Below, in pieces: positions 43,920 through 57,447 of a DNA stretch of 64,000 nucleotides. This stretch comes from Limnohabitans sp. (lineage in GTDB: Bacteria; Pseudomonadota; Gammaproteobacteria; Burkholderiales; Burkholderiaceae_C). The notes beneath the pieces are model-generated. The model did no database searches. It saw nothing but the letters and a program-made list of their open reading frames with translations, and had not been told where the DNA came from. The position numbers were made by a program, and so were the translations under genes. The DNA lies in assembly GCA_018882835.1 (NCBI GenBank), contig VERE01000014.1, forward strand, positions 1-64,000, in the 5' to 3' direction. Positions within the stretch are counted from its first letter, which is position 1, and every line of letters starts with the position of its first letter.

Positions 43920-44927
43920 ATGACTCACTTAGACGATCGCGCGAAGTTGTTGCTCAAAGCGCTCGTAGAGCGCTACATTGCCGATGGCCAGCCGGTGGGC
44001 TCGCGCACGCTTTCGCGAGCTTCCGGGCTGGAGTTGTCGCCTGCCACCATCCGCAATGTGATGTCCGACCTGGAAGAGTTGGGGCTGATCGCCAGCCCTC
44101 ATACCTCGGCAGGTCGCATTCCCACTGCACGGGGATACCGGCTGTTTGTCGACACCATGCTGACTGTTAAGCACGAAGAACTCCACGCACCCAGTCTGGC
44201 CCCCGAGCAGCCGCAAAAGGTGATTGCCAACGCAGCCAACCTGTTGTCCAACCTGTCTCATTTTGTGGGGGTGGTGATGGCGCCCCGGCGCAGCACAGTG
44301 TTTCGCCATATCGAGTTCCTGCGCCTGTCCGACCGGCGCCTGCTTGTGATCATCGTGTCGCCCGATGGCGATGTGCAAAACCGGGTGATCTTCACTGAAT
44401 CTGATTACACCCAGACCCAGCTGATTGAAACCTCCAACTATCTGAACAGCCATTTTTCGGGCATGGCCATGGAGCAAGTGCGCGAGAAATTGCAAGGTGA
44501 GGTCGAGCGCTTGCGCGGTGAAATTGCCGCGCTCATGCAAGCGGCCGTTCAAGTCAGCTCCGAGGCCCTGACCCAGGCTCAGGACGAAGTGATCATCAGC
44601 GGCGAGCGCAACCTTTTGTCGGTCAGTGACTTTTCGGCCGACATGGGGCATTTACGTCGCGCCTTTGAGCTGTTTGAGCAAAAAGCCCAGCTGATGCGAC
44701 TGCTGGACGTCTCGGTCAAGGCCGAGGGAGTGCGTATTTACATTGGCGGCGAGAGCCAGATCGTGCCCTTTGAGGAGCTGTCAGTGGTGAGCTCGCCCTA
44801 TGAAGTCGATGGTCAGGTGGTGGGCACGCTGGGCGTGATCGGCCCCACCCGCATGAACTACGACCGCATGATCCAGATTGTGGACATCACCTCCAAGCTG
44901 GTCAGCAATGCGCTGAGCCACAAATAA
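43920..44927 (+). CDS. hrcA: Heat-inducible transcription repressor HrcA
   Basis: A 335-residue repressor. The N-terminal winged helix has '[33 protein letters not shown]' and '[20 protein letters not shown]', followed by the GAF-like effector domain with IYIGGESQI near the C-terminus. It binds CIRCE with GroEL help. No CIRCE is present in its own upstream region, but a perfect one lies before rpoH at 21579-21605. Confidence 0.96.
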
Positions 44928-45032: not shown

Positions 45033-45060
45033 TTGTGACCAAAAATGGGTAACGTACAAT
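45033..45060 (+). promoter_or_regulatory. Candidate promoter of the intron-containing tRNA gene
   Basis: TTGTGA (45033-45038) and TACAAT (45055-45060) are separated by 16 bp, and the tRNA 5' end is 9 bp past the -10 box. This matches a short-leader tRNA promoter. Confidence 0.55.
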
Positions 45061-45068
45061 TAACTTGC

Positions 45069-45351
45069 GGGCCTATAGCTCAGTTGGTTAGAGCAGAGGA
45101 CTCATATTTTTCAAATGTGCCTTACGCGTGGAAACTGTGTAAGGGATGGTGTCAAAGTCGGCGAAAGCTAAGTGCATCGATGCATACGCCAACGCCGAGC
45201 CAAGCTGGGTGAGCAATCATCTTGAAGGTGTAGAGACTTGACGGCACCCACCTACGGCGCAAGCTATGGTGAAGGCAAAGTCCAGGGAGTAGCGAAAGCT
45301 GCACAAACCGGAATCCTTTGGTCCCAGGTTCAAGTCCTGGTGGGCCCACCA
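45069..45351 (+). tRNA. tRNA with anticodon CAT (probably tRNA-Ile2), interrupted by a group I intron
   Basis: Exon 1 is 45069-45105 and exon 2 is 45312-45351. The joined 77-nt tRNA folds with acceptor GGGCCTA/TGGGCCC, D-loop TTGGTTAGA, anticodon stem GAGGA/TCCTT, loop CTCATAA, T-loop TTCAAGT and an encoded CCA end. The break is between anticodon position 36 and position 37. The sequence resembles the tRNA-Ile(CAU) gene that carries an intron at the same place in Azoarcus; elongator tRNA-Met is the alternative. Tools that expect an uninterrupted bacterial tRNA will miss it. Confidence 0.92.
45106..45311 (+). ncRNA. Self-splicing group I intron (Azoarcus-like, subgroup IC3) in tRNA(CAU)
   Basis: A 206-nt insertion in the anticodon loop. 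P1 can be drawn as CATATTT (45103-45109) with AAATGTG (45113-45119), placing the splice-site U45105 in a U-G wobble with G45117. P2 follows (CCTTAC...GTAAGG with a GAAA turn), then a P3 strand GGTGTC with its later partner GGCACC, a P7-like AGACT...AGTCC pair and a P9 hairpin with GAAA. The intron ends in G45311. Length and core segments (GGTGTCAAA, GGTGTAGAGACT, CACAAACCGG) match my memory of the 205-nt Azoarcus intron. No ORF is encoded within it. Confidence 0.92.
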
Positions 45352-45364
45352 AATACCAACGGTA

Positions 45365-45406
45365 CATACTGAAGACATGGTTGACAGTTTGTACCGATCA
45401 CATCGT
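45365..45406 (+). repeat. 42-bp direct repeat, copy A
   Basis: It matches copy B at 57406-57447. The 23-bp core AGACATGGTTGACAGTTTGT plus ACC (45373-45395) is identical, with CATAC before and ACATCGT after shared as well. It lies 14 bp past the tRNA 3' end. Confidence 0.9.
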
Positions 45407-45473
45407 CGCCACAGCTGGTATGTTGGCAGCGCATTGCATGAGCAGCATCGATCGCGATGATCGCTTGTAACAA

Positions 45474-46220
45474 TTAAGACTGCAACTGTTGAACGATCCT
45501 TACTTCATAGTCGTTGATCAGTTTTTTGAAGTACTTGTAGACATCGTCCATCTTCACTTTCAGATGGATGCTGGAAAACCCCTTATCATTTTTGTCTGCC
45601 GGAATCACCCCAGTCACCACGCTCTTGAAATACTCAGGATCTTTGTTTCTGATGGGCTGATAGGCATCAATGGCCGCAAAGATGTCTTCAAGGGTATAGC
45701 CGTGGTTTCTCGTGAGGACCATCAAGTCGTAGATGTCGCGTGATTTCACGCGGTCATAGACAACAATGCTTTTCATGACAAGAAGCCCATCGATGCCCAG
45801 TACATCAAAGCATCCCTTGGAAACCACCGCCTTTGGCGCTGTCTTCAGGAAATCAATCTGCGCCTTGGGTCGATCACCTTCATTGCGTGAATGAAACGTC
45901 ACCTTGGCACCATCGATCAGGTAATCCTGAATGTAGTGGTCCAGGTTCTCTGACGAATTGATTTTGAATCCCAGCTTTTGTTCAGATGTGACCAGGCTTT
46001 CAATCGTGGCACCACCGGCAGCCAATTCATCCAGAAGCCCATCTCTTGATGCCCGCAGGCCTTTGCTGATGTTGCTCAGCATCCGGGCCACACTCTCACT
46101 GGTCATGGGTTCAAAGGTGCGTCGCTTGAAAACACGCTTGACCTTGGGGACGCCGTAAAAAAAGCACAGCCGCGCCACATCCTCGAACTTGTGCTTTTCA
46201 AGCACCTTGCCAATCAACAC
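45474..46220 (-). pseudogene. AbiEii-like nucleotidyltransferase toxin remnant
   Basis: The open frame gives about 248 residues from a GTG at 46220. Residues from about 75 onward resemble the C-terminal two thirds of AbiEii/AbiGii proteins: LGFKINSSENLDHYIQDYLIDGAKVTF, then GIDGLLVMKSIVVYDRVKSRDIYDLMVL. The nucleotidyltransferase signature GG(T/S)xLxL...HRxSxDxD that should precede this part is not found. The N-terminal stretch (FEDVARLCFFYGVPKVKRVFKRR...MLSNIS) looks more like the end of an AbiEi-type antitoxin. The simplest reading is a deletion joining antitoxin tail to toxin tail. A complete divergent family member remains possible. Confidence 0.55.
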
Positions 46221-46563
46221 ATCGTCCCTGATGTTCGACGGTGTGCCCCACAGCTTTGATGGTGCGCGACAGGCTCGAGGTGGGCACCACCAGCACGTTA
46301 CCGGGCCCTTCGGCTGGTGCAAGCCCCACACGCTCGCCAGTCTTGTGCGCAAGGGCGCTGGCCACGGTTTGCGCATCCACCTGCTGACCAGCGGCGGCGT
46401 AAAGCCCTCTGGCCACCCGTACGCTGGTCCCAGCCTTCATCAACCGAAAAAGCGCCTGGTCAACGGCTGCACGCGTTCCTGCCGACAAAAAGTCGGCACT
46501 GGAGAACACAGCCCCGTGGGGCTGGTCTGCGATGGCTTGCCGGATTGTTTCAGAAGTACGCAT
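46198..46563 (-). CDS. AbiEi-like (DUF6088-type) antitoxin, apparently shortened
   Basis: A 121-residue protein. Residues 1-60 form a winged-helix domain with the family pattern VFSSADFLSAGTRAAVDQALFRLMKAGTSVRVARGLY, and a short segment follows (ALAHKTGERVG, then SLSRTIKAVGHTV). Proteins of this family that I know are nearer 200 residues. The sequence ends out of frame with what looks like its continuation in the overlapping downstream frame, so a frameshift or internal deletion is likely. It lies upstream of, and overlaps, the toxin-like gene. Confidence 0.6.
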   Translation of the reverse strand: MRTSETIRQAIADQPHGAVFSSADFLSAGTRAAVDQALFRLMKAGTSVRVARGLYAAAGQQVDAQTVASALAHKTGERVGLAPAEGPGNVLVVPTSSLSRTIKAVGHTVEHQGRCVDWQGA

Positions 46564-46824
46564 GTCAGAAATTATGAATGTATTTAAAATATTTTCAATA
46601 ATTCAAAATGGATGCATGCACTGGTGCCAAGGACTTAGCAGGCTTCAAGAACTTGAGGCCTGTTGGTCATCGTTCAGCCGTCGATTCAGACCTTGGTCGA
46701 TACAGTCCCCGCTCATTCGCGCTCTGTTGCCACCACGCAAGATTGAGGTGAATAGAAAGTTGGACGGTAGCCCACCGCCGACTGCCAAAATTCAAAGCCG
46801 GGCGCTATGCAATCTGGATACGTT

Positions 46825-47589
46825 TTAAGCAGTCAGCGGCAACGTGGATCGCGTGCCGATCGCACGGCGCACATCATCCTGGGCTTTGCGCAATAGCTTT
46901 CGCAGCTGTTTCTCACCGATGGCTGAGATGGCTTCGGTCAGACCCACCAGCGCCAGAGCGGCAGCAGGTTCACCGTCCATATCAAAGAGCGGAACAGCTG
47001 CGGCCCCCACGTTGGACTCCACTTCACCAAGAGAGAGATAGAAGCCTTCGGCATGGATGGCATGCATGCGGATCCGGAAATCCGACCAACTGGCGCCCAA
47101 TCCCAGGCTCTGCACTTCCTGGGCATGCGCCTCATAGATCCGCAGCAGTTGACGCCGCCCCAGATGCGAAATCATGATCTTTGCGGCCGCGCCAAGCAGC
47201 AAAGGCATCGGCCTGCCTCGACCATAGCTCAGGCGCAGCGTAGGATCCCCGCTGGCACGGTGGATGTCAACCACCCGGTCGTCAAACAGTGTGGAAAGCA
47301 CGGCATCGAGGCCTGTCTTCTTGACCAGCTCGTCCATCACTGGGCTTGCAGCCAGCAGCACGGGGTCGCTGCGTCTGAGCTGATAGTCCAGCTCAATGAT
47401 CCGTGGACCTAGCGAATAGCGGCCTGCTGAGACCTTGCGCAAAAAACCCGCTTCCACCAAATCCTTCACATAACGGTAACCGGTTGCACGGGTGTACCCG
47501 AGGGCATGGTTGATTTCGTCGGCGTGCCAAACCGGGTGTACTTCGCAGAAAAGGTCGAGGACAGCGAATCCCTTGGCAAGGCTGGTCAT
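46825..47589 (-). CDS. IclR-family transcriptional regulator
   Basis: A protein of about 254 residues. An N-terminal winged helix-turn-helix (SLAKGFAVLDLFCEVHPVWHADEINHALGYTRATGYRYVKDLVEAGFL) is followed by the IclR effector domain (RPMPLLLGAAAKIMISHL; SLGEVESNVGAAAVPLFD). It is divergent from the Baeyer-Villiger gene, with a 17-bp perfect-arm palindrome in the shared intergenic region. It is the likely regulator of the catabolic cluster, as MhpR, another IclR-family protein, is for mhp in E. coli. The start at ATG 47589 is preferred to a TTG at 47652. Confidence 0.9.
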   Translation of the reverse strand: MTSLAKGFAVLDLFCEVHPVWHADEINHALGYTRATGYRYVKDLVEAGFLRKVSAGRYSLGPRIIELDYQLRRSDPVLLAASPVMDELVKKTGLDAVLSTLFDDRVVDIHRASGDPTLRLSYGRGRPMPLLLGAAAKIMISHLGRRQLLRIYEAHAQEVQSLGLGASWSDFRIRMHAIHAEGFYLSLGEVESNVGAAAVPLFDMDGEPAAALALVGLTEAISAIGEKQLRKLLRKAQDDVRRAIGTRSTLPLTA

Positions 47590-47878
47590 GCAATCGTTGC
47601 TTTCGTTGGTGCGCCGACCCTTGTCGCCAAGGGCCCGGTGGATTGGGTTCAAAAGGCTTGCTCAGCCCCCAAAAGGGCTGTTTTCCTTAGTTTGTCTTGG
47701 CCCTGGCGGCGAGGCGCAGGATACATGCAGCGCAAACTGAAACGTGCTGCAAATATTTCTAATCTCTAATATAGCAAGACAATAGGCAAGCTCCGTATAA
47801 CTATCGCTGAAGGAACCAATTGAATGAGATATAGGGAAAACGTGAGCATCAAGGTCGTTTGCAGCAAATTAAAATTTC

Positions 47879-47895
47879 ATCTCATTTATTGAGAT
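47879..47895. promoter_or_regulatory. Candidate IclR operator, site 1 (perfect palindrome)
   Basis: ATCTCA-TTTAT-TGAGAT has 6-bp arms that are perfect inverted repeats. It sits in the 475-bp gap between the divergent IclR and Baeyer-Villiger genes. The same 17-mer recurs with changes at 50172-50188 and 56112-56128. I see nothing else definable in this gap, which is AT-rich compared with the genes. Confidence 0.6.
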
Positions 47896-48064
47896 AATTG
47901 ATTTATCGCAAGACGCTGGTATGGCCTACATCCCGGCGCAATTTGCGAATCAGTCTCTCCATCGTGTTTGTGAAGTTATTCGGAACAGCAACCCATAAGT
48001 GGTGTGTGTCTGTGCCTTCTGTCCAGTCATGAGAAACCTTTCTGCAATGAGGAACCTTTCTGTT

Positions 48065-50044
48065 ATGCCTTTAACTGCTGGTGCCATTGACCCCCCGGGT
48101 GTTGACGACGTCTATTGGCGCGAGGAGTACGCGAAGATCTGCGAAGACGATGCCTTTCTCGCCCAAATCGTGGCAAAAGCGGACCTGCCTTCGCTTCTCA
48201 TAGCGCTTTCCGCCGTCACCGGAGACATGACGATGCTCCGTCCGCACTTGCGCCCGCCGTTCCCTCTGGTTGATACGGTTGCGCCCGCTAATGGTGGAAT
48301 GAGCGAAGTCGCACAAATCGAAGCCCGTGCACTGGCTCTGGCCGCACTCAAACAATTGCGGGACGAGGGTCTGAATCGCCCGCGTCCACTTGACGATGCC
48401 GAGACACGCGCCGTGATCGATTTCCTCACAAACAGTGCCGGAGACACCGATGCGGAGATTCTCACGCACGAGATGGATCTCGCTGCGAAAAAGCTTGGTG
48501 CCCCTGGTTGGAAATTCGCAGATGTGGCGGGTGATCGCGAATTCTCTGTTGCAGTGATTGGTACCGGTATGTCTGGTATTGGTGCCATGTATCGTCTGAA
48601 GCAGGCTGGCGTACCTTTTACAGCATTCGAGAAGAACCCGGACGTTGGCGGCGTGTGGTGGGCCAATACCTATCCTGGCGTGCGACTCGATACGCCAACT
48701 TTCGGTTATAGCTTTTCATTTGCGCAGCGCACAGATTGGCCCCATGCATTTGCAACCGGTAGTGAAATTCAAGACTATGCGCGCGAAATCGTTGCGCGTA
48801 GCGGGCTTCGAGAGAATATTAAATTTGGTGTTGAAGTTGTCTCGCTCAAGTGGGAGGAATCCACTGGCTACTGGGATGTGGTGACTCGCACAGCCAATGA
48901 TGAGTTGGTGCACCATCGTTTCAACGCGGTAATTTCGGCCGCGGGTCAGTTAGAGCGCCCCAATATCCCTGAGATCGAAGGGCAGAGTGATTTCAAGGGC
49001 GTACGCATGCACTCCGCTCGGTGGAACCACGATGTAGCGCTTCGTGGAAAGCGTGTCGCAGTCATCGGTACTGGTGCAAGTGCATACCAGATCGTCCCGG
49101 CCATTGTGGATGAGGTTGAACACCTGACGGTATTTCAGCGTTCTGGTCCGTGGATGGTCCCTGCCCCGAACTACTATGACGACACTCCGCAGGTAATGCG
49201 CTGGTTGGTGGAACATGTTCCTTGCTACGGTCAATGGTTCCGACTTTCAGCTTTTTACCAAGCCGCTACTGGACGTTTGCACACCGCCATTGTCGACCCG
49301 AACTGGAATCGAGAGGATTCAGTCTCGGCCAAAAACTTGGAAGTGCGCGAAACCTTGACTAAGTCCATTCGCGAGCAATGGAAAAACTATCCAGAGCATG
49401 TCGACAAGATCGTGCCGACCTACCCACCCGGAGGCAAGCGAATGCTGCGCGACAACGGCGTGTGGGCGGCGGCGTTGCAGCGTCCCAACGCAGCGTTGGT
49501 GACCAATCCTATTGTTCGCTTCACCGAAACAGGGGTGGTCACTGAAGATGGGGTTGAACACCCAGTAGATGTCGTCGTTTATGCAACAGGTTTCACCGCT
49601 TCTGAGTTTCTTGATCCGATGGAGATTCGCGGTGCTTCAGGCCAGACCATCAAAGAATACTGGAAGGGCAACGCGAAAGCGTGGGGCGGTATTGCCGTGC
49701 CCGACTTCCCCAACTTCTTCATAGTACTGGGGCCGAACACGAATTATGTCGTGCACGGTAGTCAGCATTTCATGATGGAGTGTGCAGCGGAGTTCGCCAT
49801 CGAATCGATCCATCAAGTTCTGCGTCGAGGCATCAAAGGCATTGAAGTCAAACAAGAGGAGCTTGATGCCTTTGTCGAGCGTGTCGATGCTGAAAACCAG
49901 CGCCGCGCCTGGGGTCGCCCGCAAGTCAGCAATTGGTACAAGAATCGCTTTGGACGGGTCTCTCAGGTGTGGCCATTCAGCCACCGTGAGTACTGGCAAC
50001 TCACCCATGACGTTGACTTTGACGGCGGCTTCATCTTGCATTGA
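48065..50044 (+). CDS. Baeyer-Villiger flavin monooxygenase, 4-hydroxyacetophenone monooxygenase-like
   Basis: A protein of about 659 residues. An N-terminal extension of about 150 residues, as in 4-hydroxyacetophenone monooxygenase, precedes the FAD Rossmann motif GTGMSGIG near residue 166. The Baeyer-Villiger fingerprint FKGVRMHSARWNHD starts at residue 310, and a second Rossmann motif GTGASA lies near 335. Such enzymes turn aryl ketones into esters with NADPH and O2. Three in-frame ATGs occur (48029, 48047, 48065) in a tandem near-repeat; 48065 is chosen because AGGA lies 11 bases upstream. It heads the meta-cleavage cluster but is separated from mhpB by a regulatory gap. Confidence 0.88.
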   Translation: MPLTAGAIDPPGVDDVYWREEYAKICEDDAFLAQIVAKADLPSLLIALSAVTGDMTMLRPHLRPPFPLVDTVAPANGGMSEVAQIEARALALAALKQLRDEGLNRPRPLDDAETRAVIDFLTNSAGDTDAEILTHEMDLAAKKLGAPGWKFADVAGDREFSVAVIGTGMSGIGAMYRLKQAGVPFTAFEKNPDVGGVWWANTYPGVRLDTPTFGYSFSFAQRTDWPHAFATGSEIQDYAREIVARSGLRENIKFGVEVVSLKWEESTGYWDVVTRTANDELVHHRFNAVISAAGQLERPNIPEIEGQSDFKGVRMHSARWNHDVALRGKRVAVIGTGASAYQIVPAIVDEVEHLTVFQRSGPWMVPAPNYYDDTPQVMRWLVEHVPCYGQWFRLSAFYQAATGRLHTAIVDPNWNREDSVSAKNLEVRETLTKSIREQWKNYPEHVDKIVPTYPPGGKRMLRDNGVWAAALQRPNAALVTNPIVRFTETGVVTEDGVEHPVDVVVYATGFTASEFLDPMEIRGASGQTIKEYWKGNAKAWGGIAVPDFPNFFIVLGPNTNYVVHGSQHFMMECAAEFAIESIHQVLRRGIKGIEVKQEELDAFVERVDAENQRRAWGRPQVSNWYKNRFGRVSQVWPFSHREYWQLTHDVDFDGGFILH

Positions 50045-50421
50045 ATCATCAAGCTTTTGGGGTGCAGAAGAATATGGCTTGGCTGACGCCAATCTCGGCT
50101 ATGCGCTAACTCCTTTGAATGTGCGGTTCTAACGACAGCCTAGGGTATGCACGGATACTGAAATTCAATTTTTCCCATTTATTGAGATAAACTGATTTGC
50201 ACAATCAAACTGTCGGTTCGGATACTGATAAGCATATGGCTACTTCCCTCACATTGTTTGCACTTCCTGTGTTGATCGTAGCGATCGGCATTTTGCCATT
50301 GCACCTTGAACTTAAGTGCTCGGCATTACGTGACGCCACAGCTTCTCATTTTGACCGCCCTCAGCTAGCCTGATCACAAGAACTGGAACTGTCTTTAGGT
50401 CGCTACTCAAAAGGAATCCAT
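50045..50421 (+). other. Intergenic region between Baeyer-Villiger gene and mhpB
   Basis: 377 bp without a recognised gene. It holds the second palindrome (50172-50188) and a 45-codon reading frame (50236-50373) starting MATSLTLFALPVLIVAIGILP, hydrophobic at its start, with no clear Shine-Dalgarno sequence. That frame may be chance or the remnant of a transporter. The mhpB Shine-Dalgarno sequence AAGGA is at the right edge. Confidence 0.5.
50172..50188. promoter_or_regulatory. Candidate IclR operator, site 2
   Basis: TTCCCA-TTTAT-TGAGAT matches site 1 at 15 of 17 positions, including the spacer and the whole right arm, and the match continues with AA. It lies about 235 bp upstream of mhpB. 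Confidence 0.5.
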
Positions 50422-51357
50422 ATGCAGCTCGCGGTTGCAGCTCTATCCCACGCACCGTCTTTCGGTAACGTCGATCCAGGTGGCACCACGCTCGATGAAA
50501 TCGAGGCCGGCATCCAAGAAGTTCGCGCCTTCATTGAGCACTTCGATCCTGAGGCGATCGTCGTCTTCGGGCCCGATCACTTCAATGGCCAGCTATATTC
50601 AAATATCGCCCCGTGGGTGATTGGCGCGCAGGCCGAGGGCGTCGGCGACTATGGCACGACCGAAGGCCACATCAAGGTAGATAGCGAAACCGCACGCCAG
50701 CTGCATGCCGCAGTGCTGGCTGAGGGTATCGACATCGCGCGCTCGGAGCGAATGACGGTCGATCACGGCGTCATGCAACCGGTGGATTTCTTGCTTGGCA
50801 AGCATAACGAAAGACCCATCATCCCAGTTTTTGTCAACGCGATTGCCCATCCGCTGACGCCAATGAAGCGTGTGCGCGAGATGGGGGAGGCGTTTGGCAA
50901 AGCTGCACTGCAGCTTGGAAAGAGAGTGCTCTTCATCGCTTCGGGGGGGATTTCGCATTCCCCGCCAATTCCTCGTTGGGAGAGTGCACCTGCCGAGGTG
51001 AAAGCACGTTTGGTTTTTTATGCTCCCACGCGCGAGGAGCGACGCGCGCGCGAAAAGGCTATTGTTGATGGCATCCAGAAGATCGCGGATGGCAAGGCTC
51101 CGAGTTCACCGTTGAACGAAGCGTGGGACACCTTGCTGCTTGATACCTTCCGATCAGGTGATCTATCGCCGGTTGACTCGTGGGATAACGAGCAATTCAT
51201 TATTGACGGTGGCTCCGCTGCACATGAGATGCGCAGTTGGATAGCTGCTTATGCAGCATTGTCGATGGCCGGTAAATATACGTTGCCAGTGGATCGCTAC
51301 TGGCCAGTCAAGGCTTGGGGTGCTGGTTTTGCCGTTCAGGCGGGATGTGCAGTATGA
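50422..51357 (+). CDS. mhpB: 2,3-dihydroxyphenylpropionate-type extradiol dioxygenase (MhpB-like)
   Basis: A 311-residue class III (LigB-fold) extradiol enzyme that closely follows E. coli MhpB along its length: the N-terminal LSHAPSFG (Fe-ligand His10), VVFGPDHFNG with the second His near 53, MTVDHGVMQPVDFLLG and LFIASGGISHSPP. It cleaves a 3-substituted catechol next to the hydroxyls, giving a yellow meta-cleavage product. The stop overlaps the hydrolase start (ATGA), so the two are translationally coupled. Confidence 0.92.
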   Translation: MQLAVAALSHAPSFGNVDPGGTTLDEIEAGIQEVRAFIEHFDPEAIVVFGPDHFNGQLYSNIAPWVIGAQAEGVGDYGTTEGHIKVDSETARQLHAAVLAEGIDIARSERMTVDHGVMQPVDFLLGKHNERPIIPVFVNAIAHPLTPMKRVREMGEAFGKAALQLGKRVLFIASGGISHSPPIPRWESAPAEVKARLVFYAPTREERRAREKAIVDGIQKIADGKAPSSPLNEAWDTLLLDTFRSGDLSPVDSWDNEQFIIDGGSAAHEMRSWIAAYAALSMAGKYTLPVDRYWPVKAWGAGFAVQAGCAV

Positions 51358-52229
51358 ATCGACTTGTGACTTTCTGGGAGGCAGTGTCTGATCTTCCGCA
51401 TCGTCTGCATTACGTTGATGTTGGACAGTGGCGCACGCGTGTGCTCGACCTTGGTGAAAGTGACAGAGTCGTTGTACTTGCCAATGGCACAAGTGGCCAC
51501 ATTGAGGCTTGGACGCAGAATGTGCGTGCGCTGGTTCAGGCGGGCTACCGAGTCATCGGTTACGACTATCCCGGTCATGGGTATACCACCCTGACCGATC
51601 ACGATTTGGAGATCCCCGAGTACGAGTTGCACTTGATCGGGCTGCTGGATGCACTCAAGCTTAAGCGTGTCCATCTGGCGGGGGAGTCGCTCGGCGGATG
51701 GATCGCTGTCAAGTTTGCTGCCCATCACCCTGATCGATTGCTGAGTGTGATTCTGAGTGCGCCCGGCGGACGCGTGGTCGGCGAGCAGAAGGTGGACAAG
51801 GCTCAATCGGTGAGCAAGCAAGCGGTTGCCGACCCGACATTTGAGAACGTTAAAAAGCGCCTTCAGGTGGTGATTTACGACTCACAGAAAATTACGGAAG
51901 AGTTGGTGCGCGTTCGCCAGGCTGTTTACAGCCGAGATCCTAGCGGGGCCAACATGGCTCACATAGCGGTATTGCGTCAGCCTGAACAGCGTTGGCGCAA
52001 CCGCGTAACAGACGAGGATTTTGCAGCCATTCCCGTGCCAGCGCTCTTCGTCTGGACCGACCATGAACCTACTGGCGACCCTGCAGAAGGCAGGCGCTTG
52101 GCTGCACTAATTCCTCAAGGGGAGTTTTTGCTGGTTGAAGGCTCTGCGCACTGGCCTCAATGGGAAGGGGCGGAGGTTTTCAATGCGGCGGCCATATCCT
52201 TTCTCGACAAATTGCACAACCAGAGCTAG
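51354..52229 (+). CDS. Meta-cleavage product alpha/beta hydrolase (MhpC-like)
   Basis: A 291-residue alpha/beta hydrolase with nucleophile elbow GESLGG (Ser near residue 121), the Asp in VWTDHEP and the His in GSAHWPQWE. The oxyanion region reads ANGTSGHIEAW, where MhpC has HGSGPGA, so the substrate may differ from that of E. coli MhpC. By position it hydrolyses the ring-fission product to 2-hydroxypenta-2,4-dienoate plus a carboxylic acid. It might instead cleave the ester made by the Baeyer-Villiger enzyme. Confidence 0.85.
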   Translation: MNRLVTFWEAVSDLPHRLHYVDVGQWRTRVLDLGESDRVVVLANGTSGHIEAWTQNVRALVQAGYRVIGYDYPGHGYTTLTDHDLEIPEYELHLIGLLDALKLKRVHLAGESLGGWIAVKFAAHHPDRLLSVILSAPGGRVVGEQKVDKAQSVSKQAVADPTFENVKKRLQVVIYDSQKITEELVRVRQAVYSRDPSGANMAHIAVLRQPEQRWRNRVTDEDFAAIPVPALFVWTDHEPTGDPAEGRRLAALIPQGEFLLVEGSAHWPQWEGAEVFNAAAISFLDKLHNQS

Positions 52230-52236
52230 CTAGAAC

Positions 52237-53040
52237 ATGACCAGAATGACGAACACTTCTGAAACTATCCAAAGCATTGCCCGTGAGCTCTTTGATGCCC
52301 GCGTAGGTGTCTACACTGTCCCTTACGTCAGTCCGCGATTACCTGAGCGTGACCTAGACGCAGCCTATGCAATCTCCGAGGAGTTAGCCGCACTGCGTGA
52401 GCGACTTCTGGGCGTGCGCAGGGTAGGGCGCAAGGTTGGACTGACCAATCCGAACGTGCAAAAGCGCGTCGGCATCAGTGAACCTGACTATGGAATCATC
52501 CACGATGACATGATTTTTCAGTCGGGGGTCGTGTTGCCTAAGTCACGCTACAACCGATTGCGGATCGAAGCCGAAGTGGCATTTGTGCTCAAGAGTGACA
52601 TTCTCGATGCCACGCTTGAAGCAGTAGCGGCGGCTATTGACTATGTGACGCCGGCCTTTGAGATCGTTGATTTTCGTTATGACGGCAGTGTGGGGCAGAT
52701 CGTAGACACGATTGCTGACAACGCTGGATGCAGTGGCATTGTGGTCGGAGAGGAAAAGCATTCCTACGGATCGGTAGATCTCAAAGCTGTCGAAATGGTC
52801 ATTATTGGGGGCGACCAAGAGATTACCCGTGGTGTTGGAAGCAATGTCCTCGGCGACCCGGTCAATGCCGTGCTTTGGCTGGCAGAAACTGCCATCCGCA
52901 CGGGGCAGCCGTTGCGGGCTGGAGAAGTGCTGCTCTCCGGATCAATCGGCTATATCGAGCCTTGGCCGATGGATGTCGAGTGTGTTGCCACCATTACGGG
53001 TCTCGGACGTGTGGTCGCGACTGTCGATTCGAAGGCATGA
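52237..53040 (+). CDS. mhpD: 2-keto-4-pentenoate hydratase (MhpD-like)
   Basis: A 267-residue member of the fumarylacetoacetate hydrolase fold, hydratase branch. Motifs are RRVGRKVGLTNPNVQKRVG, the metal-ligand stretch RIEAEVAFVL near residue 108, and FEIVDFRYDG. It hydrates 2-hydroxypenta-2,4-dienoate to 4-hydroxy-2-oxovalerate. It starts 7 bp after the hydrolase gene. Confidence 0.92.
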   Translation: MTRMTNTSETIQSIARELFDARVGVYTVPYVSPRLPERDLDAAYAISEELAALRERLLGVRRVGRKVGLTNPNVQKRVGISEPDYGIIHDDMIFQSGVVLPKSRYNRLRIEAEVAFVLKSDILDATLEAVAAAIDYVTPAFEIVDFRYDGSVGQIVDTIADNAGCSGIVVGEEKHSYGSVDLKAVEMVIIGGDQEITRGVGSNVLGDPVNAVLWLAETAIRTGQPLRAGEVLLSGSIGYIEPWPMDVECVATITGLGRVVATVDSKA

Positions 53041-53077
53041 GTTTCTAGATTAAGAGAGAGTGAGAGAGAGCTAAATC

Positions 53078-53536
53078 ATGAGTAACTATCGCCCCGTTGA
53101 TGCAGTCACACGCGTCGAGATTGAGCAACTCATTTCCGAAATGCTTTACCGCCTGGATCACAACCAGGCCGATGCCACATGGGAGCTCTACACCGAAGAC
53201 GGTGTTTCAGTCGGGCCCTTGGGCACGATGAACCGCGAGCAATGCAAGGCTTGGGGTGCGAAGCGGGCGAAACAAACCGATATCGTCAGCCGCCATTTCA
53301 TTGGCGGAATCCGGTTGGTCTGGGACGGTGATGAAGTGGCTGGCAGCGTGCAGTATCTGACGTTCCGCGACACCCATGAGCCGCAGACACAGCCAGCTTC
53401 TGTGGGCGAGTTCCGCGAGCGATATCGCAAAGTTGATGGACAGTGGCGATTTGTGCGCCGCGAGATCGTGCCTATCTTTGGCGGTAACGCTGCGGCTGCG
53501 CATGCGGCACGGGTAACAGAACGTGAAAGCAAGTAA
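53078..53536 (+). CDS. NTF2-like (SnoaL-type) protein in the mhp cluster
   Basis: A 152-residue NTF2-like protein with the pattern 'IEQLISEMLYRLDHNQADATWELYTEDGVSVGPLG' and the terminal 'YRKVDGQWRFVRREIVPIF'. A purine-rich run (AGAGAGAGTGAGAGAGAG) lies just upstream and includes the Shine-Dalgarno sequence. Its stop overlaps the next ATG by one base. It has no counterpart in the E. coli mhp operon. Its function is unknown; an isomerase or hydratase on a pathway intermediate is possible. Confidence 0.85.
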   Translation: MSNYRPVDAVTRVEIEQLISEMLYRLDHNQADATWELYTEDGVSVGPLGTMNREQCKAWGAKRAKQTDIVSRHFIGGIRLVWDGDEVAGSVQYLTFRDTHEPQTQPASVGEFRERYRKVDGQWRFVRREIVPIFGGNAAAAHAARVTERESK

Positions 53537-54294
53537 TGAAAGCAGCCGCTCTGGGGGGAAGTCCCAAGATATTGGTGCATCAGACGCTGCCTTCGTTCTC
53601 TATTCCGGAATGGGCGAAGCTTGCCGGTTACGACGGCATCATCCTTGATCTTCAACACGGGGAACTCGGTCTCGAAGCTGCATGTGGCATCCTGCGTTCG
53701 ATTCCTCGCGACAACACTTATGCTTGGGCGCGCGTCGGCTCGACCGACCCTGCACCGATCCTGCGATTGCTTGACAGTGGTGCCCGTGGCATCGTTGCGC
53801 CCACGATCGAGTCGCGTGAGCAGGCGCAAGCCTTGGTGGCTGCGACCAAATATTTACCGATCGGCAACCGCAGCATGGGGCCGTCTCGGCCAGGGCTTTA
53901 CATCGGCGATTCGTATGCCGAAGCAGGCAACCTCGCCGTGTCGACCATCGCACAGATTGAGACCCGGATCGGCGTTGAGCGCGCTGAAGAAATCATCTCC
54001 ACTCCAGGTTTGGACTCAATCTATATCGGTCCTGCCGATCTTGCTGTTTCCTATGGATTGCCAGGGCGTGGTGACTGGGACGACGGACCTGTCCGCGACG
54101 CGATCCTCTACTTGCGCGAACTCACCCAGGCACATGGCGTGACGCTTGGCATTTATTCCGGCAAATCGACATACACGGCAGCACTATTGACCGATGGCTT
54201 GGTCGACTATGTTGCATTTGGTATCGACCTCGTTTTGTTGAATCGCGCCTTCGGCGAAAACATCAATGAACTCAAGATCGCATTAGCTAAATAA
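53536..54294 (+). CDS. HpcH/HpaI-family class II aldolase
   Basis: A 252-residue aldolase with the family motifs 'AKLAGYDGIILDLQHGELG', RGIVAPTIESREQA, metal-ligand Glu in IAQIETRIG and Asp in IYIGPADLAVS. It splits 4-hydroxy-2-oxo acids to pyruvate and an aldehyde. It stands where mhpE (a DRE-TIM-type aldolase) and mhpF (acetaldehyde dehydrogenase) would be in E. coli. No acylating aldehyde dehydrogenase is present, so the aldehyde must be handled elsewhere. Confidence 0.9.
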   Translation: MKAAALGGSPKILVHQTLPSFSIPEWAKLAGYDGIILDLQHGELGLEAACGILRSIPRDNTYAWARVGSTDPAPILRLLDSGARGIVAPTIESREQAQALVAATKYLPIGNRSMGPSRPGLYIGDSYAEAGNLAVSTIAQIETRIGVERAEEIISTPGLDSIYIGPADLAVSYGLPGRGDWDDGPVRDAILYLRELTQAHGVTLGIYSGKSTYTAALLTDGLVDYVAFGIDLVLLNRAFGENINELKIALAK

Positions 54295-54311
54295 ATTGAA
54301 GGAAATACATC

Positions 54312-55937
54312 ATGATGAAAAAAAATGATGTTTTAATCATTGGCGCAGGGCCTGTTGGCCTCATGCTAGCCAACCTGCTCGGACAGCAGGGCGTGAATGT
54401 TCTTGTCGTTGAGAAAAACGATACGCTGATCGATTACCCGCGCGCAGTGGGCATCGACGATGAAGCCCTGCGCGCGATGCAGACGGTCGGTCTTGTGGAT
54501 GAGGTGCTGCCTCACACCATCCCCGATCAGAAGATTTACATGATCAATGGCGATCGACAAATTCTTTCTGAAGTCAACCCGACGACTCGCGAGTTTGGGT
54601 GGCCCCGACGTAACGGATTTGTGCAACCGATGGTGGATAGGGTACTCCTTGACGGCCTCAAGCGTTTTCCGAACACATCAGTGCGTTTCTGTACCGAAGT
54701 TGTCGATTTGCACGAACATGAAGATGGTGTGGTGGTCACGACTGAGTGTGGCGAGAAGCTGCGTGCAAGCTACGTAGTCTCAGCAGAAGGCGGTGCTTCG
54801 GCCACTCGAACCAGACTGAATATTTCGTTCGATGGCGAGACTCGGCCGTCCTGTGGCCTTGTCATTGATGTCGCCAACGACCCTATCGGAACACCGCATG
54901 CGGTGTTCGGTGGTGATCCGAAACGCAGCTATGCCAGCATTGCATTGCCGCACGGCATCCGCCGCTGGGAATTCACGTTGTTCGAAAATGAAGATCCTGC
55001 GTTGGTGGAAAGCGATGAATTCATATACGAGCTGCTTGCGCCTCACGTACCTGACCCAACCAAGCTGGAGTTTATTCGCCGTCGTGTCTATCGGCACCAC
55101 GCGCGTGTGGCTGGACAGTTCAGGCTTGGTTCTGTCTTTCTTGCGGGTGATGCCGCGCACGTGATGCCGGTGGTCGCTGGACAGGGGTGGAACTCCGGTA
55201 TCCGAGACGCTTTCAATCTGGCTTGGAAACTTGCTGCGGTGATTAAAGGCGTATGCGGCGATGCTCTGCTCGAAACCTACGAGTTGGAGCGATTGGGGCA
55301 CGTCAAGCAGATGGTCGCCGTTTCACTTAGCATGGCCAAGGAAATGACGGATCACGACCCCGTTAAAGCAGCAGAACGAGACCGCATTGCTGCCAACCGT
55401 ACACCTGAGGAACGTGAGGCACATAGGCGGCAGGCGTTCAAGCCTCAGCCCAAGTTCGAAACCGGTGTGGTGGTACAGACGCCGCAGCCAAGCTTCAAGA
55501 CGCTACCCGCACGCGACGTCCCTCGTATGGCGGGTGCCCTCTTCCCGCAGCCGCGTGCAACGAATTCAGAAGGTGTCGAAATGCTGCTCGACGATGCCAC
55601 AGGTCAAGGGTGGCGCGTGCTGATGTGGAACAACAATCCGATGGCTTTTCTTTCGGCCAAGCATCGCGCAGCGCTGGAGCATCTGCACGCACGAATTGTT
55701 CAGGTGGTGCCCAAAGCGCAACTGCCTTGGGCGCGTCGTCATGCACCAGAGGGAGTTACGTTGGTCGGTGACTTGGGCGGAGAGGGCAGCTTGCAAGCCT
55801 GGTTCGACGCTAGACCGGTTGGCGCCGTGATCCTGCGTCCCGACCATGTGGTTGCCGCGGAATGCCTGGCGCAGGAGCTAGACGATATGCTTGCACGCGT
55901 TTTGGACGTTGCGAGTTTCTGTTTGCCACAGCAGTAA
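54312..55937 (+). CDS. mhpA: 3-(3-hydroxyphenyl)propionate hydroxylase-like FAD monooxygenase (MhpA)
   Basis: A 541-residue class A flavin hydroxylase close to E. coli MhpA: FAD motif GAGPVGLMLANLLGQQGV, then DYPRAVGIDDEALRAMQTVGLVDEVLPH, EFGWPRRNGFVQP, and GDAAHVMPVVAGQGWNSGIRDAFNLAWKLA. It adds a hydroxyl ortho to a phenol to give the catechol for MhpB. AAGGAAATA precedes the ATGATG start. It is the last gene of the cluster, where in E. coli it is the first. Confidence 0.93.
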   Translation: MMKKNDVLIIGAGPVGLMLANLLGQQGVNVLVVEKNDTLIDYPRAVGIDDEALRAMQTVGLVDEVLPHTIPDQKIYMINGDRQILSEVNPTTREFGWPRRNGFVQPMVDRVLLDGLKRFPNTSVRFCTEVVDLHEHEDGVVVTTECGEKLRASYVVSAEGGASATRTRLNISFDGETRPSCGLVIDVANDPIGTPHAVFGGDPKRSYASIALPHGIRRWEFTLFENEDPALVESDEFIYELLAPHVPDPTKLEFIRRRVYRHHARVAGQFRLGSVFLAGDAAHVMPVVAGQGWNSGIRDAFNLAWKLAAVIKGVCGDALLETYELERLGHVKQMVAVSLSMAKEMTDHDPVKAAERDRIAANRTPEEREAHRRQAFKPQPKFETGVVVQTPQPSFKTLPARDVPRMAGALFPQPRATNSEGVEMLLDDATGQGWRVLMWNNNPMAFLSAKHRAALEHLHARIVQVVPKAQLPWARRHAPEGVTLVGDLGGEGSLQAWFDARPVGAVILRPDHVVAAECLAQELDDMLARVLDVASFCLPQQ

Positions 55938-56349
55938 TTTTTCTATGGGTCGTACCAGACACGGCAAAGCGATGTCCTTGTTTCACTGTCCGGCCCCACT
56001 AATTTGTGAACAGAGCCAAACCTGCATTTCCACTATCGCAGCCGTTTAGCGTCGTGGGGATGCCAACTTTCTTGGCGTGCAGTAGGGTTATTCTGAGTTT
56101 TTATTTAAAAAATCTCGTATCATGAGACATTTGGTAAGTTATGTGAGGAGTCGAATGAAACTGATGAGCTTTAAATATCAAAACTTTTCAAATAGTGCGG
56201 GCCTTGACACAAGTTGTCATGCTTATTTATGCCTTGGGTTTCGCGCCTCGAATCAATCGCAAGTCGCAGATCTGCAGGCTAGTGTTAGCAGCTAAATCGG
56301 GCCACTCGTGCTCAAGTTCAATCGCACGAAGCGATCAGGAGAAAAATAG
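55938..56349 (+). other. AT-rich intergenic region before the Bug receptor gene
   Basis: 412 bp with no gene that I recognise. It holds a runs-of-A/T stretch and the third palindrome at 56112-56128, and a CAGGAGAAAAATAG Shine-Dalgarno region just before the next ATG. No terminator hairpin is evident after mhpA. Confidence 0.5.
56112..56128. promoter_or_regulatory. Candidate IclR operator, site 3
   Basis: ATCTCG-TATCA-TGAGAC matches site 1 at 12 of 17 positions, with the inner TCTC/GAGA kept in both arms and the same 5-bp spacer. It is 222 bp upstream of the Bug receptor ATG. Confidence 0.4.
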
Positions 56350-57333
56350 ATGAACCGACGTGATTTCTGCGGCAGAGCCGCCGCACTGAGCGTGTCCTTT
56401 TCCCTACCGGGTGTTTCGTACGCTCAAAGGCAGATGGACCAATTGCGTATCTTTGTAGGCTTTCCGGCAGGTGGCGCCACCGATTCAATAGCCCGCCATA
56501 TCGCTGAGGGGGTGCGACCAGGCTACGCACGTGCCGCGATTGTTGAAAACAAACCCGGTTTGGCAAGCCGCTTTGCGTTGGACGCAATGAAACGCTATCC
56601 GTCTGACGGCAGCGCAATGGTGGTAATGCCTGAGACCGTTGTCACGCTGATACCCCACGTAGATCCCGGTCCGAGCACGCCCACGCTGGCAGACGTGGTA
56701 CCCGTTACTCCCTGCGCGGTGCTACGACAGGGTTTTGCTGTGGGCCCCATGGTGCCCGCTTCGGTTAAAACAATGCGGGAATTTCTGGCGTGGGCCAAGG
56801 CCAACCCGACGCTGGCCAACTACGGTACGCCGGGACCCAATTCGCCACAGCGTTTCCTGATGCAGGAGTTGTTACGCGAAGCAGGTATCCCGCTCAATCA
56901 CATTCCGTACAAGGGTTCCATGCCTGGCATCGTCGATTTACTCGGTGGCCAGATCGCGACATTCGTTTCGCCAATTGGCGACTCCATGCCACATATTAAA
57001 GAAGGCCGCTTACGCCTGCTGGGCGTGGCGAGCCGAAACCGGTCAAAACTTTTGCCTGGAGTCCCCACTCTCGCGGAGCAAGGCTTCATGGACAAGATCG
57101 GAGACGAATTTTCGGCTGTCGTCATGGCCAAGGGCACACCTGCAGAGATTGTGGAAGCTGCGGCCAAGGCCATCACTCAGGTGTTCACGCAACCTACGGT
57201 CGTGCAAGCACTGGCCAGCCTGGGCATGGAACCGCACGCCAGCTCACCGGTCGAATATGCTCAATTCCTGCGTGAAAATCACAAACTATGGGGAGAGCGC
57301 GTCAAAGCCTCCGGATTCAAGCCCGAAGCTTAA
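56350..57333 (+). CDS. Bug-family (TctC-like) receptor linked to the mhp cluster
   Basis: A 327-residue periplasmic binding protein. A twin-arginine-like start NRRDFCGRAAALSVSFSLPGVSYAQ is followed by 'LRIFVGFPAGGATDSIARHIAEG' and 'HIPYKGSMPGIVDLLGGQIATFVSP'. The usual early APDGYTL motif is replaced by 'YPSDGSAMVVMP'. No membrane partner is nearby. Shared operator-like palindromes suggest co-regulation with the catabolic genes and a role in substrate capture. Confidence 0.88.
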   Translation: MNRRDFCGRAAALSVSFSLPGVSYAQRQMDQLRIFVGFPAGGATDSIARHIAEGVRPGYARAAIVENKPGLASRFALDAMKRYPSDGSAMVVMPETVVTLIPHVDPGPSTPTLADVVPVTPCAVLRQGFAVGPMVPASVKTMREFLAWAKANPTLANYGTPGPNSPQRFLMQELLREAGIPLNHIPYKGSMPGIVDLLGGQIATFVSPIGDSMPHIKEGRLRLLGVASRNRSKLLPGVPTLAEQGFMDKIGDEFSAVVMAKGTPAEIVEAAAKAITQVFTQPTVVQALASLGMEPHASSPVEYAQFLRENHKLWGERVKASGFKPEA

Positions 57334-57405
57334 ATCGTCATCCTCGAGTACGTATGGCCACAGAAGTATGGCCAGCGCGGTGTCTTGCTCCAGCACTCGG
57401 CAGTG

Positions 57406-57447
57406 CATACCTGAGACATGGTTGACAGTTTGTACCAATTACATCGT
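57406..57447 (+). repeat. 42-bp direct repeat, copy B
   Basis: It is in the same orientation as copy A at 45365-45406, with the identical 23-bp core at 57414-57436. It lies between the Bug receptor and the AraC regulator, and so closes the segment that carries the AbiE remnant and mhp-like cluster. Confidence 0.9.

What the first reader, a model, noticed from the sequence alone, without database searches (positions are those of the whole stretch)
45069..45351. Group I intron splitting a tRNA(CAU) anticodon loop
The gene is a clear tRNA once 206 nt are removed from between anticodon base 36 and base 37. P1 can be drawn by hand with a U45105-G45117 wobble at the 5' splice site, the intron ends in G, and GNRA-type turns occur in P2 and P9. 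Placement and core sequence match the Azoarcus tRNA-Ile(CAU) intron, one of the smallest and most stable group I ribozymes. Homologues in this lineage appear uncommon as far as I know, and standard tRNA finders would leave this essential tRNA unannotated.
Basis: partly seen in the sequence, partly recalled or inferred. Interest (0 to 1): 0.85.

Follow-up and report, generated by a model that had tools for sequence, protein, structure and literature searches.

The report
Self-splicing intron in replacement isoleucine tRNA
A bacterial isoleucine tRNA gene is split by a small self-splicing RNA of a known kind, and close relatives of it ride on mobile DNA elements that cut the host's own tRNA gene and bring a split one to replace it.

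Summary
Confirmed: 45069-45351 is tRNA-Ile2(CAU) split between positions 36 and 37 by a 206-nt group I intron (45106-45311), 82% identical to the Azoarcus intron (recalled). All 55 drawn pairs are standard; helices covary across 38 introns. No other complete tRNA-Ile(CAU) was found in this 98%-complete MAG.

New to me: in relatives the intron-split tRNA is cargo of tRNA-targeting integrative elements. The element enters the anticodon loop (7-bp core CTCATAA), breaks the host's usually intronless tRNA and supplies a complete intron-bearing copy 150-230 bp inside its left end. The core lies upstream of 45 of 89 intron tRNAs (0.006 expected per locus; 1 of 32 intronless loci). One element occurs in two families, its ends 98-99% identical and starting and stopping at the core. 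This moves introns without a homing endonuclease. A shielding role for the intron is possible but leaky: three elements sit in intron-bearing copies. The window's copy has no element; a close relative carries one at this locus with the same tRNA body and intron type.

The parts
45069..45105 (+). 5' exon of tRNA-Ile2(CAU), ends with anticodon CAU
   Evidence: ARAGORN with introns; exon identical to the 5' half of an intronless tRNA in relative G438
45106..45311 (+). group I intron, 206 nt, inserted between tRNA positions 36 and 37; last base G45311 (omega G)
45312..45351 (+). 3' exon of the tRNA, CCA encoded
   Evidence: identical to the 3' half of an intronless tRNA in G438
45103..45119 (+). 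P1: exon CAU with intron GUG (U45105.G45117 wobble) plus 45106-45109/45113-45116
   Evidence: sequence; structure count (intron-internal part of P1 pairs in 75.5% of cells, the weakest but one of the 13 helices)
45120..45144 (+). P2 45120-45127/45137-45144 with GAAA loop 45131-45134
   Evidence: 8 of 9 pairs change on both sides in relatives
45148..45248 (+). P3 45148-45153/45243-45248 enclosing P4-P6
   Evidence: P3: 100% of cells paired
45235..45282 (+). P7 45235-45238/45279-45282, presumed guanosine-binding helix (G130-C177 in Azoarcus numbering, recalled)
   Evidence: invariant in 38 of 38
45249..45302 (+). P8 45249-45252/45268-45271 and P9 45289-45293/45298-45302 with GAAA loop
45033..45060 (+). 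promoter-like TTGTGA-16-TACAAT; the stretch from 45041 aligns to the leader of the replacement copy in close relative G432
   Evidence: consensus match only (1 found, 0.4 expected)
43920..44927 (+). hrcA, upstream neighbour of this tRNA in many relatives
   Evidence: Pfam HrcA

Best explanation
The window holds the apparently only tRNA-Ile2(CAU) gene of a Limnohabitans-genus MAG, interrupted by a group I ribozyme that must splice itself out before the tRNA can work. The intron belongs to a lineage that spreads, at least in part, by riding on integrative elements rather than by homing. A tyrosine integrase recombines at the 7-bp anticodon loop CTCATAA of tRNA-Ile(CAU). The left junction keeps the host's 5' tRNA half and the right junction its 3' half, so the host gene is destroyed. 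Inside the left end the element carries a leader and a complete tRNA-Ile(CAU) gene with a group I intron, which takes over AUA decoding. Element loss, or recombination between the copies, can leave the intron-bearing tRNA behind as an ordinary chromosomal gene, which is my reading of the window. Shown by sequence: intron anatomy, covariation, no other Ile(CAU) tRNA found, element borders, broken host gene, intron-bearing copy inside the borders, the same element in two families. Inferred: splicing in the cell, integrase activity, lysidine at C34, and the history of the window's own copy.
For: Intron. Sole copy. Elements: joining the two flanks restores an intact intronless tRNA-Ile(CAU) in 7 of 8 joins tried (6 of 7, of which G445, G432 and G454 join across two contigs; G859); in the eighth (G184) the right flank carries an intron. 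The replacement copy is seen to bear an intron in G260, G323, G445, G432 (cut by the contig end) and G859; it is intronless in L103 and beyond the contig end in G454. The same element in G518 and in Limnohabitans sp. Jir61 (G184), of another family, is 98.85% identical over 2946 bp beginning at the left core and 98.2% over 946 bp ending at the right core, less so between (91.3% over 3107 bp, 84.3% over 1760 bp); intron-tRNA and integrase lie in the first stretch. Core CTCATAA lies 110-300 bp upstream of 45 of 89 Ile intron tRNAs, against 1 of 32 intronless loci, 2 of 89 on the reverse strand and 0.006 expected per locus. A relative of the four integrases follows within 1.6 kb in 14 of 85. Of 26 selected Polynucleobacter-like genomes with a strong intron, 21 have no match to the intact arm pattern and 17 have a right junction; 11 of 12 with a weak or no intron hit have an intact arm. 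Window: relative G432 (91.5% identical over 1744 bp up to the hrcA stop) has at this locus a broken tRNA 5' half of body GGGGCG, a leader, then a tRNA of body GGGCCTATAG with the window-type intron.
Against: The window itself has no broken 5' half or core next to the tRNA and its genome no integrase of this family by the A1 profile; in 2 of 16 intronless loci compared, about 55 bp after the tRNA match the window, so plain gain of an intron in the resident gene is also possible. In the tree the window intron groups with copies without an element, beside but not inside the element clade. 44 of 89 Ile intron tRNAs have no core upstream. In G323 and G859 no relative of the four integrases was found. 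Right junctions also occur in 4 of the 12 genomes with a weak or no intron hit (G885, G897, G973, G981), so elements at this site need no intron. The loci were fetched partly because they had elements, so the counts are not prevalences. No experiment was done.
Confidence: 0.82

Rival explanations
1. Vertical relic: the intron was in the tRNA-Ile(CAU) of an ancestor of this group; elements merely captured intron-bearing copies, and the window copy was never on an element.
For: Many intron copies sit at the hrcA locus without an element. The window groups with copies without an element. 44 of 89 Ile introns have no core upstream.
Against: Sister genomes are often intronless with an intact tRNA. 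Restored empty sites are intronless in 7 of 8 joins. The window tRNA body and intron match the replacement copy of close relative G432 and not its native half. The promoter-tRNA block is 95.6% identical to G464 while the hrcA region is 74% identical.
Confidence: 0.3
2. Shield: the intron is kept because it splits the attachment site, so the replacement tRNA is not cut again by the same kind of element.
For: Both intron positions (36/37 and, by my reading, 33/34) lie inside the 7-bp core. Most introns at 36/37 change the core (first two intron bases AG 45, AT 16, GA 6, GG 5, CG 1, against AA 7, which keeps it). An intronless replacement in Polynucleobacter (L103) has a different anticodon stem. 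The same idea is in print for archaea (PMC3293823, PMC4390854, passages).
Against: At least three elements abut intron-bearing copies: G184, where the intron keeps the core, and G890 and G1004 (L323, L324), where the intron type would normally break it by one base. In G952 and G518 leader-borne replacement copies have been entered at the core by another element, but their earlier intron state is unknown, so they do not help.
Confidence: 0.22
3. The intron is dead or the gene is a pseudogene, and AUA is read by another tRNA missed in the assembly.
For: The MAG is 98% complete with 107 contigs; no tRNA-Ile(GAU) was among the tRNAs found. Decayed intron copies exist in relatives.
Against: All 55 pairs are standard and both exons are intact; no other Ile(CAU) arm by the pattern in the genome, nor in 21 of 26 selected relatives that carry the intron.
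Confidence: 0.05

Closest known systems
Azoarcus sp. BH72 tRNA-Ile(CAU) group I intron (subgroup IC3, recalled)
   Same: Same tRNA, same insertion point, about the same length, GAAA loops, U.G at the 5' splice site, terminal G; 81.9% identity (sequence recalled; L263 is an exact match to it).
   Different: P1 loop and P5a/P6a differ. No splicing test here. L263 shows no broken half or relative of the four integrases in its 3.2 kb.
Group I introns in tRNA-Ile2 of Acidovorax and Burkholderia (tRNAscan-SE 2.0 paper, PMC8450103, passage)
   Same: Same tRNA; explains why the tRNA seems missing from annotations.
   Different: The passage reports presence only; nothing on integrative elements.
Archaeal tRNA intron gained with an integrated element (Sugahara et al. 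2012, PMC3293823, passages)
   Same: 5' tRNA fragment, intron-bearing tRNA and recombinase side by side; the authors propose an intron-bearing attP and protection against further invasion.
   Different: Archaeal intron at 24/25 in a fosmid clone of one population; 'group I intron' and 'self-splicing' occur 0 times. Here group I ribozymes, anticodon loop, whole replacement tRNA, many genomes and tandem arrays.
Tycheposons and other tRNA-integrating islands
   Same: A tRNA at one border and a tyrosine recombinase (PMC10872708, passages). Carriage of a complete tRNA is recalled, not read.
   Different: No intron in the tRNA is described in the passages seen.
Group I introns in the T-loop of tmRNA genes (PMC11915505, abstract and passages)
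   Same: Group I introns at several nearby subsites of a gene that islands also use as a target.
   Different: Other RNA, other loop; the passages seen draw no link between intron and element.

Membership tests
Group I intron, tRNA-Ile(CAU) type | P3-P9 core with P3/P7 pseudoknot | tested here: met
   55 of 55 pairs standard in the window; covariation 0.433 vs 0.167 shuffled; Rfam Intron_gpI E 8.7e-8 but below the gathering score
Group I intron, tRNA-Ile(CAU) type | U.G at the 5' splice site and terminal G | tested here: met
   U45105.G45117, G45311
Group I intron, tRNA-Ile(CAU) type | Sequence relation to the Azoarcus intron | tested here: met
   81.9% over 193 aligned bases; reference recalled, and matched 100% by L263
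Group I intron, tRNA-Ile(CAU) type | Self-splicing activity | not testable with these tools
   needs a transcript assay
tRNA-Ile2 (lysidine-modified CAU tRNA) | CAU anticodon in a non-Met body, no other such gene | tested here: met
   within a 98%-complete MAG
tRNA-Ile2 (lysidine-modified CAU tRNA) | C34 modified by TilS | not testable with these tools
   tilS of the window genome was not searched
tRNA-targeting integrative element, relatives | attL and attR that rejoin to an intact target | tested here: met
   7 of 8 joins give an intronless tRNA-Ile(CAU)
tRNA-targeting integrative element, relatives | Integrase next to the border | tested here: inconclusive
   14 of 85 within 1.6 kb by tblastn to four integrases (many loci hold less than 1.6 kb downstream); some elements have none found
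tRNA-targeting integrative element, the window itself | attL, attR and integrase | tested here: not met
   no broken half or core at the tRNA, no A1-type integrase in G000

The most novel reading that the evidence does not exclude
The intron is a working part of the element: a group I ribozyme armours the replacement tRNA by splitting the integrase's own target, while the host, its native tRNA-Ile(CAU) cut, becomes dependent on the element for AUA decoding. Integrative elements would then be a main vehicle of endonuclease-less tRNA introns in bacteria, including tRNA-Leu(UAA), where 8 of 22 intron loci also follow what looks like a broken tRNA-Leu half.
Probability: 0.24. Interest if true: 0.88.

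Novelty: new variant of a known kind. Interest (0 to 1): 0.72.

Why it matters
How small tRNA introns without homing endonucleases get about in bacteria is, as far as I know, unsettled; a 2014 review says there is little evidence that bacterial introns move between species (PMC3984707, passages). Here an intron-bearing tRNA lies inside a mobile element whose borders are exact and whose ends are nearly identical in two bacterial families, giving a concrete and testable vehicle. It would also make a ribozyme essential to the host in one step, because the host's own tRNA is cut. For annotation, such tRNAs and islands are easily missed by default tools.

Tried and rejected
MFE folding as proof of the intron: not discriminating. 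Rfam at gathering threshold: no intron hit. Phages as carriers of this integrase: no match in phages, none confirmed in viral contigs, only distant ones in plasmids. The 12-kb stretch after the window tRNA as the element: it is bounded by an imperfect repeat of about 50 bp (near 45366 and 57403), not by the core, so I do not claim it as the element. Strict shielding by the intron: three counter-examples. I first took the G952 leader-borne intronless tRNA as an unshielded copy that was hit; one search shows that what follows its core matches the left end of ordinary 3'-half elements in G895 and G986 (91%), but its earlier intron state cannot be known, so I withdrew it as support and lowered the shield odds from 0.3 to 0.22 and the novel case from 0.3 to 0.24. 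I had also labelled the family of G518 Methylophilaceae-like; nothing in my calls supports a name, so I dropped it. Arg(CCU) and Ser(UGA) introns as element-borne: core upstream in 1 of 16 (looks like chance) and 0 of 3. The hit upstream of L168 is spurious by eye; one search flagged 31 of 85 with it. Orphan intron hits in L235-L241: of the seven, L238 is an intact tRNA with the 33/34-type intron; the other six look like decayed copies by eye.

Full report
What is there. Position 45069-45351 is a tRNA(CAU) gene with a 206-nt insertion after the anticodon. ARAGORN with introns allowed returns it; default ARAGORN does not. The gene with the insertion removed folds as a 77-nt cloverleaf. The genome is a 3.28-Mb MAG in 107 contigs, 98% complete with 5.2% contamination. 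I place it in the genus of Limnohabitans because same-genus handles G260 and G184 have contigs of the same length and content as named Limnohabitans contigs. Its two other CAU tRNAs look like initiator and elongator Met. A pattern for an intact Ile(CAU) anticodon arm has no match. So this intron-bearing gene seems to be the only tRNA-Ile2 of the genome, with the caveat of an incomplete MAG.

Is it a group I intron. Rfam Intron_gpI matches at E 8.7e-8, 36.8 bits, under its gathering score of 50. I aligned 38 distinct introns of the same tRNA site, the window's included, and wrote a P1-P9 structure with the P3/P7 pseudoknot. All 55 pairs are standard in the window. Across the 38, 94.4% of cells pair, 31 pairs change on both sides, and the covariation score is 0.433 against 0.167 in shuffles (0 of 500) and at most 0.105 when slid. 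The tip of P8 (54.8%) and the intron part of P1 (75.5%) are the weak helices. MFE folding by itself is unremarkable. The Azoarcus intron, recalled from memory, is 81.9% identical over 193 aligned bases; locus L263 is identical to that recalled sequence over 197 nt.

How common. A blastn search with the window intron matches 57 of 399 genomes drawn from the family. With a covariance model built from the 38 introns, 32 of 84 genomes of the genus, 63 of 399 drawn from the order, 17 of 32 of the family of G518 and 77 of 151 drawn from the genus of G859 have a match; these include introns of other tRNAs and decayed copies. I call the last genus Polynucleobacter-like because the rpoD flank of named Polynucleobacter L103 is 82-85% identical to its loci over 680 bp (79-81% to loci of the family of G518). 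Hosts in the loci read are tRNA-Ile(CAU), Leu(UAA), Arg(CCU) and Ser(UGA). Group I introns in tRNA-Ile2 of Acidovorax and Burkholderia are already in print (PMC8450103, passage).

The unexpected part. In Limnohabitans sp. B9-3 (G260), Jir61 (G184) and L. parvus II-B4 (G189) the intron-bearing tRNA lies about 0.1 to 1.5 kb before a tyrosine-integrase-like gene. Of four such integrases, Pfam finds Phage_integrase in two, an integrase SAM-like domain in one and nothing in the fourth. About 150-175 bp before the tRNA is a second, broken copy of its 5' half that runs into foreign sequence just after the anticodon loop. The names come from a scan of named genomes with the integrase alignment, which gave 11 loci; the tRNA near the integrase bears an intron in 6 (L094-L097, L099, L101), is an intronless CAU tRNA in 3 (L100, L102 of Met type, L103) and is something else in 2. 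Joining the flanks of elements restores an intact, intronless tRNA-Ile(CAU) for G260, G323, L103, and, across two contigs, G445, G432 and G454, and for G859. In G184 the right flank carries an intron, so an element there had entered an intron-bearing gene. The shared core is CTCATAA, the seven bases of the anticodon loop.

Borders and transfer. The second element of Jir61 and an element in G518, of another family, are 98.85% identical over 2946 bp starting at the left core and 98.2% over 946 bp ending at the right core, with stretches of 91.3% and 84.3% between; the intron-tRNA (a second intron type, inserted between positions 33 and 34 by my reading) and an integrase identical over 457 residues lie in the first stretch. 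This is the clearest evidence that such introns move with the element.

Polynucleobacter-like arrays. Elements stand in tandem, most ending TCTGCT-CTCATAA. Left ends are of three kinds: a tRNA 3' half that restores the gene in the ordinary way, a leader plus a complete tRNA with intron, or neither seen. One mini-element of about 750 bp holds little but leader and intron-tRNA. I tested 26 selected genomes with a strong intron hit (183 bits or more): an intact Ile arm was found in 5 and not in 21, a right junction in 17. In 12 genomes with a weak or no intron hit an intact arm was found in 11 and a right junction in 4. The pattern misses tRNAs with other anticodon stems and junctions with T at its first base.

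Counts and controls. After removing duplicates, 89 Ile(CAU) intron tRNAs had at least 300 bp upstream (one had less and was dropped). The core lies 110-300 bp upstream in 45, on the reverse strand in 2; 0.006 per locus is expected from sequence further upstream. Of 32 intronless Ile(CAU) loci one has it, the G952 case below. For Leu(UAA), core CTTAAAA is upstream in 9 of 22 (0.026 expected; 2 on the reverse strand); 8 of these look like broken tRNA-Leu halves from the bases before the core (two degenerate; I read the whole half only for L056 and L057), all in the window's family. Arg(CCU) 1 of 16, Ser 0 of 3. The loci are a convenience sample: best hits, plus regions fetched because they had elements.

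Does the intron shield the tRNA. Most introns alter the core directly after CAU; only 7 Ile introns begin AA and keep it. In L103 the intronless replacement has a different anticodon stem. Against this, right element ends abut intron-bearing genes in G184, G890 (L323) and G1004 (L324), so intron copies are hit too. In G952 and G518 leader-borne copies of one leader type (94% identical over 264 bp, ending at the core) have been entered by another element, but whether they had introns before is unknown. I treat shielding as possible and leaky. The idea is in print for archaea (PMC3293823 and PMC4390854, passages).

The window's own copy. It has hrcA upstream, no broken half and no core, and no related integrase was found in the genome. 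A close relative, G432, 91.5% identical over 1744 bp up to the hrcA stop, has at the same place a broken tRNA half of body GGGGCG, a leader, and a tRNA of body GGGCCTATAG with the window-type intron; its promoter-tRNA stretch aligns to 45041-45170 at 89% up to the contig end. G464 has an intact tRNA-Ile beside hrcA and a second, intron-bearing one 16.5 kb on whose block is 95.6% identical to the window while the hrcA region is 74% identical. In the intron tree the window joins G464 and G455 (support 91/87) in a clade (95/89) that also holds G427 and the element clade (100/98); the bootstrap had not settled. About 55 bp after the window's tRNA match in 2 of 16 intronless loci compared. I read the window copy as a resident descendant of an element-borne replacement, at about even odds with intron gain in the resident gene by ordinary recombination.

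Literature. Among ten searches of the held open-access library, those for group I intron with tRNA gene, integrase and attB (1 paper, on mycobacteriophages, listing only), with tRNA, genomic island and integration site (5 papers, passages of one seen), with Polynucleobacter and tRNA (0), and with integrative element, tRNA and anticodon (0) gave nothing that describes this arrangement in bacteria. The library lacks most subscription papers, so this is no proof of novelty. The nearest print is the archaeal case above.

Noticed in passing
L365, L366, L367, L368, L369, L370, L372 (viral contigs): tRNA-Ile(CAU) genes with group I introns on 7 of 10 viral contigs found by a core pattern (two are called Gln by ARAGORN, but the exons are Ile-like). 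A 2014 review says phage introns seen by then sit only in protein genes (PMC3984707, passage).
   Followed up: partly
L368 3129-3776 and L372 6250-6897: A TilS-like gene (NCBIfam TIGR02432, above cut-off) directly upstream of the viral contig's intron-bearing tRNA-Ile(CAU); L368 also has a UvsX-like gene.
   Followed up: partly
L364, L371: Intron-bearing tRNA-Lys(CUU) (as called by ARAGORN) beside a phage-type integrase with arm DNA-binding domain on viral contigs.
   Followed up: no
L166-L169, L204, L238, L293, L294, L297: A second group I intron type in tRNA-Ile(CAU), apparently between U33 and C34, miscalled by ARAGORN (mostly as Leu(UAA)); its P1 was not resolved.
   Followed up: partly
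L055-L057, L059, L061, L062, L066, L067: Intron-bearing tRNA-Leu(UAA) follows what looks like a broken tRNA-Leu 5' half (core 156-203 bp upstream), the same layout as for Ile.
   Followed up: partly
window 45366-57446: About 12 kb with IclR, monooxygenase and other catabolic-looking genes bounded by an imperfect repeat of about 50 bp, between the tRNA and sequence that lies next to the tRNA 3' half in G432.
   Followed up: partly
window 45474-46563; L267 2131-2289: A DUF6088 gene with an overlapping unassigned ORF just after the tRNA; a relative of it also follows the intron tRNA in L267. Possibly an AbiE-like pair (by eye).
   Followed up: no
L080 (Comamonas aquatica plasmid pB1A): A decayed 3' part of such an intron plus 3' exon between an IS3 transposase and a restriction-modification gene.
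   Followed up: no
L274, L279, L286: tRNA-Ser(UGA) with group I introns in the order.
   Followed up: no
L081 (Tritonibacter mobilis): Group I intron apparently in a tRNA-Thr(UGU)-like anticodon loop on a large plasmid; ARAGORN calls it Ile.
   Followed up: no
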